Part shown: positions 50,510 through 54,603 of the stretch, in pieces
How positions within the stretch are numbered: the stretch's first letter is position 1
How the letters are laid out: each line of letters starts with the position of its first letter
Assembly (NCBI RefSeq): GCF_001043975.1
Contig: NZ_LABY01000059.1
Coordinates: 1 to 64,000 of the forward strand
Direction of reading: 5' to 3'
DNA from: Methylobacterium variabile
GTDB taxonomy: Bacteria; Pseudomonadota; Alphaproteobacteria; Rhizobiales; Beijerinckiaceae
DNA length: 64,000 nucleotides
Position numbers and translations under genes: made by a program
Notes under the pieces: generated by a model
The model's database searches: none
Seen by the model: only the letters and a program-made list of their open reading frames with translations
What the model was told of the DNA's origin: nothing

Positions 50510-52138
50510 ATGCTCGGCCTGATGCAGGACTGGCCCCTGCTGATCCACCGCGTCATCGACTACGCCGCCGTGCAGCACGGTGCCCGCCCGGTCATCTCGC
50601 GCTCGGTCGAGGGGCCGATGCACCGGACGAACTACGCCGAGGTGCGGCAGCGGTCCTTGCGCCTGTCGAAGCGCCTCGCCGCCGACGGCATCCGCCTCGG
50701 CGACCGGGTCGCGACCCTGGCCTGGAACACCTGGCGCCACCTCGAGGCTTGGTACGGCATCACCGGCATCGGCGCGATCTACCATACGGTGAACCCGCGC
50801 CTGTTCGAGGAGCAGATCGCCTACATCATCAACCACGCCGAGGACCGTATCCTGCTCCTCGACCTGACCTTCGTGCCCTTGATCGAGCGCCTCGCCGACA
50901 AGCTCCCGACGATCGAGCGCTACGTCGTCCTCACCGACGGCGCCCACATGCCGCAGACGAGCTTGCGCAACGCCGTCGCCTACGAGGACTGGCTGGCGGA
51001 GGCCGACGACGATTTCGCCTGGGCGACCTTCGAGGAGAACACCGCCGCGGGCCTGTGCTACACCTCCGGCACCACCGGCCTGCCGAAGGGCGTGCTCTAC
51101 TCGCACCGCTCGAACGTGCTCCTGGCGCTGATGGTGAACAACCCGGCCTTCATCGCGCTCAAGCCCACCGACATGGCGATGCCGGTGGTGCCGCTGTTCC
51201 ACGCCAATGCCTGGGGCTTCACCTTCGCGGCGCCGATGTCCGGCGCCGGGCTGGTCATGCCGGGCCCGAAGCTCGACGGTGCCTCGGTGCTCGAGATCCT
51301 GGAGACCACCGGCGTCACCGTGACGGCGGCGGTGCCGACCGTCTGGCTCGGCCTGCTCCAGCACCTCGACGCGACCGGCAAGCGCCTGAGCCACCTGAAG
51401 CGGGTGGTGATTGGCGGCTCGGCCTGCCCGCGGGCGATGACCGAGCGCTTCGAGCGCGATTTCGGCGTCACCGTCGACCACGCCTGGGGCATGACCGAGA
51501 TGAGCCCGATCGGCTCCTACTGCTCGCTCAAGCCCGAGGTCGCCCACCTCGAGGGCGACGCCCGCCTCGACCTCAAGATGAAGCAGGGCTACGCCCCCTT
51601 CGGCGTCGACTTCCGCCTCACCGACGACGAGGGCCGCGACCTGCCCTGGGACGGCACGACCTTCGGGCGCCTGAAGGTCGCGGGGTTCGCCGTCGCCAAG
51701 GCGTATTTCCGCAGCGACGAGCCGATCCTCGACGATCGCGGCTTCTTCGACACCGGCGATGTCGCCACCATCGATTCGCACGGCTACATGGCGATCACCG
51801 ACCGCTCGAAGGACGTGATCAAGTCCGGCGGCGAGTGGATCTCCTCGATCGACCTCGAGAACCTCGCGGTCGGCCACCCGGACGTGGCGGAGGCCGCGGT
51901 GATCGGCGTGCAGCATCCGAAATGGGACGAGCGTCCGCTGCTCATCGTGGTGCCGAAGGAGGGCAGGGTACCCGACAAGGCCGACATCCTGGCCTTCATG
52001 GCGCCGCGCATCGCCAAGTGGTGGATGCCCGACGACGTGGTGGTGGTGCAGCAGATCCCCCACACCGCCACCGGCAAGATCCAGAAGACGGCCCTCCGCG
52101 ACCAGTTCCGGGACTACCGCCTGCCGGGGGCGGCCTGA
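50510..52138 (+). CDS. Medium/long-chain fatty-acyl-CoA synthetase (AlkK-like)
   Basis: The protein is 542 residues. It has the adenylation P-loop '[20 protein letters not shown]', '[33 protein letters not shown]', '[16 protein letters not shown]' and '[41 protein letters not shown]'. It activates a fatty or aryl acid with ATP and CoA. The best match in type is the AlkK-like medium-chain ligases. The divergent MarR gene suggests substrate-responsive control. Confidence 0.93.
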
Positions 52139-52368
52139 CGCCGCCCCGCGGGAGCGGGCATTCCTCGGGTGCCCGCTCCACCCCTGCGACGCATCCGGCC
52201 CGAGCCTGCGAGCGCCTCGCGTCGGCGGGAGAGCCTCGTCCGTGCGGCCAACCGCGACGGCGCCGAGGGGGCGATCCACGGGTCCGGACGGGCCTGTGGC
52301 ACGCTTCTCCTCCGTCGTTGACGGCGTTCTTTGATATCGTGAATGGCATCAGCTGCTTCGCAGGGAGA
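52139..52368. other. Region between the acyl-CoA synthetase and the CRISPR
   Basis: These 230 bases include a less GC-rich patch from about 52315 to 52360 directly before the first repeat, where a CRISPR leader would be expected. No gene or clear promoter was recognised. Confidence 0.4.
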
Positions 52369-52458
52369 GGCTCCCCCGCCTACGCGGGGATCGACCCATC
52401 GGCATGGTTTGCGCCCGTGACCGGCCCGCGGCTCCCCCGCCTACGCGGGGGCCGACCC
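52369..52458 (+). CRISPR. Orphan mini-CRISPR, two type I-E-like repeats and one 32-bp spacer
   Basis: Repeat 1 is 52369-52397 and repeat 2 is 52430-52458, each 29 bases, beginning GGCTCCCCCGCCTACGCGGG and ending CGACCC; they differ only at positions 22-23 (AT against GC). The interval is a 32-base unique spacer (52398-52429). A 29 + 32 base period and a CCCCGC-CTAC-GCGGGG hairpin are hallmarks of type I-E arrays. The changed second copy would be the leader-distal repeat. No cas gene is in the window. Two copies cannot prove an array. Confidence 0.7.
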
Positions 52459-52486
52459 TTGCACGGAGGCATCTTCTTCAGCCCAT

Positions 52487-54232
52487 TCAAGCCATCGCGC
52501 AGGCCACCGCGAACAGCGCCAGGCCCACCGCCATCCACGTCACGTAATCGCTCACCAGCCCGCTGTGCAGCGCCTGCAGCCCCCCGAAGGCCGCCCGCTC
52601 GACGCCGGTGATCCGCCGCATCGTCCGTGACAGCGCGCGGCGGCGTGCGAGGGCGAGGGCCAGGAAGCCGAGCGTCAGCCCGATCGGCGCGAGGTTGCCG
52701 AGTTCGGCCGGCGGCAAGACCAGGGGAGGCGCCGCCGGATCGGCGAGGCGCGCCGCCGCGGCGCCGAGGAACGGCGCGACGGTGTCGTAGGGCGCGAGCG
52801 CCAGGGCGACGAGGGCGAGGGCCGGCAGGGCCATCAGCCAGAGCGGACGGTCGGGCTTCTCGCGCTCGCGCTCGGTCGGAGCGAGGAGCTCCGGCCCGGG
52901 CACGCCGCTGGCGCGCAGGAAGATCCGGGCGGCGGCGCGCAGCACCGCGCCGCCGGTGAGGGCGGTGGCGAGGGTCGTGCCGGTGGTGACGAGCGGGCCG
53001 GCCTCGTGCTCCATCAGCCCGGTTGCGCCGTGCATCAGCCCGAGGGGCAACCCGCCGAGGAGGAGCCCGCCGAGCCCCATCGCCAGGGCCGGCGACCACA
53101 GGCCCCGGCCCTGGCCGTAGAGCACGATCTCGTCGGCCGAGTGCCGCAGGGCAAGCAGCGTGCCCGCCACCATGAACAGCGCGCCCTTCACCAGGCCGTG
53201 GCCGACCATGTAGAGGAGCAGGCCCGCCTTCGCGGTGCCGCTGTCGGCCGCGAGCGCCGTCAGCATGATGCCGAGATGCGCGATGGTGGAGAAGGCGAGC
53301 AGCCGCTTGAGGTGGCGCTGCGCGAAGGCCATCAGGCCGGCGACGAGGGCGGTGGCGAGGCCGAGCCACAGCATCAGCCCGTGCACCAGCCCCATGACGG
53401 CGGGATCGCCGGCGAAGACCTGCGCCACCAGCTTGGCGAGGCCGAACAGGCCGAGGCTCACCATCGCGCCGGAGAAGATCACCGAGACCGGGCTCGGCGC
53501 GACGGCGTGGGCATCGGCGAGCCAGAGATGGAACGGCAGGATTGCTGCCTTGGTGAGGAGGGCCCCGGCCACCAGCACGAAGCCGCCGGTCACGACCGGG
53601 TCGCCGACGATCCCGGCGACGACCCGGCCCATGGCGGCGAAGTCGAGGGTGCCGGTGCGGGCGTAGAGCAGCCCGGTTCCCGCCAGCATCAGGAAGCTCG
53701 CGAGCGCGTTGGTGACCGTGAAGGTGAACGCGCCCTCCAGCGCGCTGCGGCCGAGCGGGTAGGCCGTGAGCGCGAAGGCCGCGACGCTCATCAGCTCGAA
53801 CCAGACGAACAGGTTGAACAGGTCGCGCGTGAGGCAGAAGCCGACCATCGCCGCGAGGAACAGCAGCATCAATACCTGGAAATGCGCGTGCTCGGCGTCG
53901 AAATAGCCCCAGGCGAAGACGAAGGCGGCGGCAAACAGCAGGCCGCAGAAGGCCGCCAGGGCGGCGCTCGCCGGATCGGCCTGGAAGCCGATGCCGAGGA
54001 CGACGCCCGGCCGATGCGCGGCGTCGGGCGTCCAGCCGCCGAACCAGTGCCGCACCGGCCCGTCGAGGCTGTGGCGGGCGAGCCAGGCGCACAAGCCGCA
54101 GACGGCGAGCGCGGTCAGGATCGCGACGACCTTCGGCAGGCGCGGCGGCAGCCAGTGGGCGAGGCTGAGCATCAGCGTCGCGACGCCGAGGGGCAGCAGC
54201 ACCGCGATGGCGAGAGCGGCGTCGGGGTTCAC
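52487..54232 (-). CDS. mrpD: Mrp/Mbh-type antiporter subunit D (ND4/ND5-like)
   Basis: The protein is 581 residues from a GTG overlapping the mrpC stop (GTGA). It has about 14-15 membrane segments and the proton-channel subunit blocks '[38 protein letters not shown]' with a conserved Glu, '[37 protein letters not shown]' and '[42 protein letters not shown]'. It is longer than the usual 500-residue MrpD. It is the only large antiporter-like subunit here, the last gene of the operon. Confidence 0.9.
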
Positions 54233-54603
54233 CGGCTGGACCGCTCGGGCGTGGATTCGGGCGGGCGCAGGGGGCGCAGGACCTGCGGATCGAGGGTGTG
54301 GCGGCGCTTCTGCACCTGGACGGCGACGGCCAGCAGCAGCGCCGACACGGCGGCGCCGACCACGATGTCGGTGAGCACCAGCGCCTGCACGATCGGGTCG
54401 ACCGCCGGCGTGCCGGGCGGGTGGTCGTAGAAGATCGGCGGCCCGGCGCCGTCCACGAAGCCGAGGCCGAGGAGCAGCACGTAGGTCGCCGACTGGCACA
54501 CGGTGAGGCAGCCGACGAGGTGCACGGCGTGGCGCGAGGTGGCAAGTCCGTAGAGCCCGATCCCGAACAGCCAGGCGGCGACGAACCAGGGCAATGCGCT
54601 CAT
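54229..54603 (-). CDS. mrpC: Mrp/Mbh antiporter subunit C (NuoK-like)
   Basis: The protein is 124 residues with three membrane segments and the NuoK-like sequence '[39 protein letters not shown]' and '[29 protein letters not shown]'. It overlaps mrpB by 4 bases (ATGA) and mrpD by 4 (GTGA). The C-terminal tail is polar. Confidence 0.9.

What the first reader, a model, noticed from the sequence alone, without database searches (positions are those of the whole stretch)
52369..52458. Orphan two-repeat CRISPR with type I-E geometry
Two 29-base repeats match at 27 positions, are separated by exactly 32 bases, and carry the short CCCCGC/GCGGGG stem of I-E repeats. The changed copy sits at the far end from a less GC-rich leader-like stretch. 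No cas genes lie within the window. It could be a relic of a lost system, or an array served in trans.
Basis: partly seen in the sequence, partly recalled or inferred. Interest (0 to 1): 0.72.

Follow-up and report, generated by a model that had tools for sequence, protein, structure and literature searches.

The report
Relic of a lost CRISPR system
This Methylobacterium genome keeps a two-repeat stump of a type I-E CRISPR immune system whose working genes appear to be lost, a real but ordinary fossil that still has its leader and scraps of the genes that once stood beside it.

Summary
In detail: two 29-base repeats (27/29 identical) 32 bases apart at 52369-52458, with no comparable pair in the window. 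They are a genuine type I-E array. Nine other genomes of the genus carry this repeat (up to its loop) together with Cas7e, in arrays up to 54 repeats, and the 19 arrays I aligned share a leader motif. The window's draft genome (97.66% complete) gave no match to Cas8e, Cas7e or a I-E Cas1. A DNA search with a complete relative operon finds convincing traces in three places only: 24 nt of the cas2 3' end plus leader and array here, a decayed four-repeat array on contig C174, and the first ~85 nt of cas3 on contig C401. So pieces of both ends of the lost operon survive apart. The array sits in a gene junction not found in the relatives checked. Its spacer is unique and no protospacer was found. 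Best reading: a non-functional relic of a deleted I-E system, not an array served in trans; a new example of a known kind. One relative (G031) shows an intermediate, with cas3 fused in frame to cas2.

The parts
52298..52321 (+). remnant of the 3' end of cas2 (type I-E), stop codon TGA at 52319-52321
   Evidence: 20 of 24 nt identical to the cas2 end of G031 and G107, in register with stop codon and leader; for the last 30 nt 1 of 300 shuffles scored as well, but for the whole stretch 52139-52321 65 of 300 did, and for 52139-52297 alone 186 of 300
52322..52368 (+). CRISPR leader, AT-richer than surroundings
   Evidence: motif shared by the 19 arrays aligned; last 60 nt before the repeat 51/60 identical to the G031 relic locus
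52369..52397 (+). I-E repeat 1, leader-proximal, equals the consensus of relatives such as G011 and G036
52398..52429 (+). 32-nt spacer
   Evidence: no protospacer found
52430..52458 (+). I-E repeat 2, leader-distal, two substitutions
52139..52486 (.). 348-bp gene junction that holds the array; the two flanking genes were not neighbours in the relatives compared
50510..52138 (+). flanking gene: acyl-CoA ligase (AMP-binding family); not part of CRISPR
52487..54499 (-). flanking gene: Mrp-type cation/proton antiporter subunit D-like; not part of CRISPR
   Evidence: NCBIfam matches below cut-off

Best explanation
[quoted passage not shown] Shown: an I-E array with a leader shared across the genus, no I-E effector or adaptation genes found in the assembly, and fragments of both ends of the operon (24 nt of the cas2 3' end beside the leader here, about 85 nt of the cas3 5' end on contig C401). 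Inferred: an ancestor had a full cas3-cas8e-cas11-cas7-cas5-cas6-cas1-cas2-leader-array locus, as G106 and G011 do; the operon was removed and its ends parted by deletion and rearrangement, leaving the last cas2 codons, leader and two repeats between unrelated genes. Without Cas6e and Cascade the array could at most be transcribed, not processed or used; without Cas1e-Cas2e it cannot gain spacers. It is drifting by mutation.
For: Repeat and 61-bp geometry. In 111 genus genomes the repeat pattern hits 20; the 8 genomes with ten or more hits all have Cas7e, and genomes without Cas7e have at most 5 hits. Leader shared by the 19 arrays aligned. Own genome: no Cas8e, no Cas7e, only a Cas1c. The G106 operon holds all eight I-E genes, G011 likewise (8 of 8 by tblastn). 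As DNA it matches the own genome at 16 places: the window array, three pieces of C174, C401:565-673 (82%, E 3.5e-21), and eleven short matches; tested with the eight Cas proteins under composition adjustment, only the C401 piece is significant (E 2e-5; next best 0.12). It reads as the Cas3 N-terminus. Junction not found in relatives. G031 shows an intermediate relic.
Against: Repeat 1 is intact and the leader keeps its shared core, which would also fit a recently or weakly used array; window decay is only two bases in repeat 2. The genome is a 562-contig draft at 97.66% completeness, so a cas locus in a gap cannot be excluded. The Cas1 family used sees I-E Cas1 weakly (it missed G002, which has Cas7e), so absence of Cas1e rests mainly on the DNA search. 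The cas2 remnant is only 24 nt; over the whole upstream stretch 65 of 300 shuffles score as well, and a cas2 profile did not report it. The own-genome places where relatives' neighbours of the flanking genes now lie hold no array or leader remnant, so the path of the rearrangement is not reconstructed. Four of 13 Cas7e genomes lack this repeat, and G024 has Cas7e but only short arrays.
Confidence: 0.88

Rival explanations
1. A living remote array served in trans by I-E Cas proteins encoded elsewhere in the cell.
For: Relatives keep arrays far from cas: G011 has a 36-repeat array about 2.5 Mb from its cas-adjacent array. Repeat 1 and the leader core are intact here.
Against: No Cas8e, Cas7e or I-E Cas1 match in the assembly; a full operon used as DNA query finds only scraps; the genome's other I-E array is degenerate (mismatches 4, 2, 5, 7).
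Confidence: 0.06
2. A relic array kept because its transcript has another role, for instance as a small regulatory RNA.
For: Leader core and first repeat still match relatives. Regulatory roles have been suggested for some orphan arrays (passages of PMC5294841).
Against: The spacer has no second match in its own genome and none in 110 relatives at up to 3 mismatches; no sigma-70-like promoter in 52139-52500 by a simple scan.
Confidence: 0.04
3. Not CRISPR: a REP/BIME-like palindromic element or a chance pair.
For: The repeat is a GC-rich partial palindrome in a 71% GC window.
Against: Exact 61-bp geometry, unique spacer, shared leader, and the same repeat in long arrays of genomes that have I-E cas genes.
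Confidence: 0.01
4. The junction of array, acyl-CoA ligase and antiporter gene is an assembly artefact, and the array really lies elsewhere or is longer.
For: Draft assembly; the leader-repeat unit occurs twice in the genome.
Against: The two own leaders differ (39 of 60 nt identical), and the 348-bp junction has other sequence on both sides of the array. Reads were not available.
Confidence: 0.06

Closest known systems
   Same: Same repeat, varying mostly in the loop; 32-nt spacers; leader directly after the cas2 stop codon (five loci read)
   Different: They have cas genes beside an array (all eight genes checked in G106 and G011); here the operon is gone and two repeats remain at this site
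Orphan or isolated CRISPR arrays thought to be remnants of lost systems (PMC5294841, passages read)
   Same: Array without cas genes; remnant is one of the recognised explanations
   Different: Here scraps of both ends of the former operon can be identified
G031 I-E relic locus (contig C48)
   Same: Closest leader (51/60 nt), one surviving repeat, Cascade genes and cas1 gone
   Different: Keeps most of cas3 fused in frame with most of cas2

Membership tests
CRISPR array | Near-identical direct repeats separated by spacers of regular length | tested here: met
   27/29 identity, 32-nt spacer; only two repeats, so regularity rests on one interval
CRISPR array | Spacer is not conserved chromosomal sequence | tested here: met
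   found once, in the own genome, among 111 genomes at up to 3 mismatches
CRISPR array | Leader at one end shared with related arrays | tested here: met
   19 arrays aligned; arrays of G013, G067 and G100 were not aligned and show no such motif
CRISPR array | Spacer matches a mobile element | tested here: inconclusive
   phages: one partial match at E 3; plasmids: best E 0.2; IMG/VR exact 24-nt pattern: none
Type I-E CRISPR-Cas (complete, functional) | Cas8e, Cas11, Cas7e, Cas5e, Cas6e and Cas3 in the genome | tested here: not met
   no Cas8e or Cas7e match; operon DNA search gives only remnants; the other four not searched as families; draft genome
Type I-E CRISPR-Cas (complete, functional) | Cas1e and Cas2e for adaptation | tested here: not met
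   only a Cas1c with a premature TAG; the family used sees Cas1e weakly, the DNA search is the stronger test; cas2e reduced to tails
Type I-E CRISPR-Cas (derived relic) | Repeat goes with I-E cas genes in relatives | tested here: met
   9 of 13 Cas7e genomes carry it; all 8 genomes with ten or more hits have Cas7e
Type I-E CRISPR-Cas (derived relic) | Fragments of the lost cas operon present | tested here: met
   cas3 5' end at C401:565-673; cas2 3' end here, 24 nt
REP/BIME element | Many scattered copies at irregular spacing | tested here: not met
   with the patterns used, only the two array sites in 7.43 Mb carry the repeat
crRNA-producing array | Processed crRNAs of about 61 nt | not testable with these tools
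   needs small RNA-seq

The most novel reading that the evidence does not exclude
Leader-array cassettes of the I-E system, carrying the tail of cas2 with them, are copied and moved around Methylobacterium genomes. They would act as recombination points that both dismantle the cas operon and join distant genes, so the array here would mark a rearrangement it helped to cause.
Probability: 0.12. Interest if true: 0.45.

Novelty: new member of a known kind. Interest (0 to 1): 0.22.

Why it matters
It is a readable fossil of how an I-E system disappears: the operon goes, while a leader and its first repeat outlast the cas genes. The genus (111 genomes searched) offers complete systems, an intermediate with cas3 fused to cas2, and bare arrays, so the order of loss could be worked out. 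It also warns that a two-repeat array with an intact leader core need not be functional.

Tried and rejected
Pattern hits on C59, C76, C82 (3 mismatches; 1-2) and C179 (2) were set aside as different palindromes; only C82 was printed in context, without an array.

Array or leader remnants at the own-genome sites where relatives' neighbours of the flanking genes now lie (C5, C95, C554): none at up to 8 repeat mismatches or 15 leader mismatches except one 8-mismatch hit in C5; the window itself has eight such 7-8-mismatch hits on its minus strand, so I take it as background.

A longer cas2 pseudogene between acs and leader looked plausible in a pairwise alignment but was no better than shuffles beyond the last 24 nt, and a cas2 DNA profile did not report it. 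A cas2-tail trace before the site-A arrays beat shuffles in own C174 (0 of 300 as good) and G002 (0 of 100), but not in G001, G024, G011, G106, G031 or the second G106 array (22, 13, 7, 41, 72 and 63 of 100), so the moving-cassette idea stays weak.

Eleven short further matches (E 1.2e-7 to 7.7e-4) were checked with the eight G106 Cas proteins: none significant with composition adjustment; without it and without masking, cas6e and cas11 gave many low-complexity matches everywhere, which I discount.

A deletion linking array and antiporter gene, suggested by G107 where they lie about 44 kb apart in the same relative order, was not tested further. Rfam: no match at E up to 1 in 52200-52600. No plasmid or phage record resembles 52298-52486 at E 0.001. 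The first of two genome contigs pattern scans found nothing, the second 4 records. In one search I translated cas3 in a wrong frame; searches use the right one. Six paper searches were run: 2, 26 (20 listed), 5, 0, 7 and 989 papers (8 listed, none of the 8 with the phrase Cas3-Cas2 fusion). By title none of those listed concerned Methylobacterium I-E relics. Only passages of PMC5294841 were read.

Full report
What is there. Two 29-nt repeats at 52369-52397 and 52430-52458 match at 27 positions and enclose a 32-nt spacer. The pair is alone in the window: the core occurs at no third place with up to 3 mismatches, 0 of 100 shuffles gave two matches, and no other 29-mer pair at spacing 50-70 reaches 26/29. 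The repeat forms the short CCCCGC/GCGGGG stem. The array lies in the 348-bp gap between an acyl-CoA ligase gene (50510-52138, +) and an Mrp antiporter subunit D-like gene (52487-54499, -).

Whole genome. G000 is a 7.43-Mb draft of 562 contigs, 97.66% complete. With the patterns used, the repeat occurs in two places: here and on contig C174, where four repeats with 31- or 32-nt spacers miss the consensus at 4, 2, 5 and 7 positions (part of the 5 is a one-base shift). Both arrays have the same leader motif just upstream of the first repeat. Hits on C59, C76, C82 and C179 were set aside (only C82 seen in context).

Relatives. The genus searches covered 111 genomes, own included. The repeat pattern at up to 3 mismatches hits 20 of 111; some are single hits that I take as background (G050, G051, G081, G084, G087) or divergent repeats (G013, G067). 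Cas7e matches in 13 of 111, of which 9 also carry the repeat and 4 (G016, G030, G032, G105) do not. All 8 genomes with ten or more hits have Cas7e; genomes without Cas7e have at most 5. The longest array chained has 54 repeats (G072). In G106 eight ORFs match Cas3e, Cas8e, Cas11e, Cas7e, Cas5e, Cas6e, Cas1e and Cas2e models, followed by leader and array; G011 encodes all eight as well.

Leader. In the 19 arrays I aligned, a motif running roughly TCTTTGAyATyGTGAAT, CAG, TT, GG and AGA lies directly before the first repeat, with a variant in G010, G024, G072, G101 and G002 (cas site). I did not align the arrays of G013, G067 and G100; they show no such motif. The window's last 60 nt before the repeat are closest to the G031 relic locus (51 of 60) and share 39 of 60 with the other own leader (ungapped counts; G011 site A scores low through a one-base gap). 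In the five cas loci read, the leader begins right after the cas2 stop codon. In the window the match runs 24 nt into that cas2 end, 20 of 24 identical to G031 and G107. For the last 30 nt, 1 of 300 shuffles scored as well; for the whole stretch from acs to the stop codon 65 of 300 did; for the part upstream of 52298 alone 186 of 300. So the 24 nt are supported by position and register, and nothing is shown beyond them.

The missing operon. Cas8e and Cas7e gave no match. The only Cas1 match is on C549 and is subtype I-C with an in-frame TAG, beside Cas2c, Cas4 and a ten-repeat array. The Cas1 family sees I-E Cas1 weakly and missed G002, so this is weak evidence by itself. The 9.6-kb G106 locus as DNA query gives 16 matches in the own genome: the window array, three pieces of the C174 array, C401:565-673 (82% over 109 nt, E 3.5e-21), and eleven short matches at E 1.2e-7 or weaker. 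I tested those eleven places, plus C401 and C174, with the eight G106 Cas proteins: under composition adjustment only Cas3 on C401 is significant (83% over 23 aa, E 2e-5; next best E 0.12), while the G011 control returned 8 of 8. The C401 piece covers about 20 nt before cas3 and its first 85 or so; it reads LSQDVLWAKRDAEGRSHSLVGHSANV against FSQDDLWAKRDAAGRWHSLVGHSADV in G106. An ORF towards the contig end has a weak, below-cut-off match to IS630 transposases; the ORF between it and the remnant has none. Thus the first codons of cas3 and the last codons of cas2, the two ends of one operon, survive on different contigs.

The junction. In G064 the two lie on one contig about 680 kb apart; in the other four they lie on different contigs, which in drafts is weaker. 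By nucleotide comparison, the short-chain dehydrogenase region that follows acs in G064 is shared by 6 of 19 other acs loci, with a further stretch in 2 more; the cytochrome c cluster that follows the antiporter gene in G064 is shared by G107 and G016, 3 of 10 genomes in all; the own genome has neither at this place. Its copies lie on C5, and on C95 and C554, without array remnants. So the array marks a junction not seen in the genomes compared; whether the array took part in the event is not shown, and a misassembly cannot be excluded without reads.

Site A. The C174 array sits at a place that also holds arrays in G001, G024, G031, G011, G106 and G002, between a VIT1/rubrerythrin gene and a DUF374 gene. 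It is an old remote array site. With cas it can be long (36 repeats in G011, 34 in G002; 17 and 14 in two chains in G106); in G001 and G031, without Cas7e, it has 5 and 2 recognisable repeats, but G024, which has Cas7e, also has only 2.

Spacer. It occurs once in the own genome and in none of the 110 others at up to 3 mismatches. Phage records gave one 20-nt partial match at E 3, plasmids nothing better than E 0.2, and IMG/VR no exact match to a 24-nt pattern with four free bases. Three C174 spacers tested with 24-nt patterns with three free bases gave none. No target is known.

How it works, or rather does not. With no Cas6e, Cascade, Cas3, Cas1e or Cas2e found, the array cannot be processed, used or extended (established knowledge of I-E systems, applied here). 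I conclude that it is a relic under decay. The C174 array shows decay plainly; the window array, with two changes in repeat 2, shows little. Passages of PMC5294841 describe isolated arrays as remnants or remote partners. Searches combining Methylobacterium with CRISPR terms listed 2 and 7 papers, none on this matter by title.

Score. The finding is correct, well explained and ordinary in kind. The most unusual by-product is the in-frame Cas3-Cas2 ORF in G031, a likely deletion scar.

Noticed in passing
L099:5892-8657 (G031 contig C48): A 921-aa ORF carries Cas3 HD, DEAD and Cas3 C-terminal domains followed by Cas2, all over Pfam cut-offs: the I-E operon is deleted so that cas3 is fused in frame to cas2, followed by leader and one repeat.
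   Followed up: partly
L096:9717-12455 (G000 contig C549): A separate I-C-like remnant: ten-repeat array, Cas2c (68 of 95 profile positions), Cas1c with a premature TAG, Cas4; no effector family among the few neighbouring ORFs tested.
   Followed up: partly
L137:565-673 (G000 contig C401): About 85 nt of the cas3 5' end with its upstream bases, near an ORF weakly like IS630 transposase at the contig end.
   Followed up: yes
L126 and L127 (G000 contigs C95 and C554): The own genome has two copies, 90% and 88% identical to G064, of the cytochrome c cluster that follows the antiporter genes in some relatives.
   Followed up: no
L015 (G013) and L021 (G067): Arrays with divergent I-E-like repeats and many degenerate copies in genomes without a Cas7e match.
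   Followed up: no
G107 contig C49: 45476-45892 and 89454-89675: The antiporter gene and the I-E array lie about 44 kb apart in the same relative order as in the window, where they are adjacent.
   Followed up: partly
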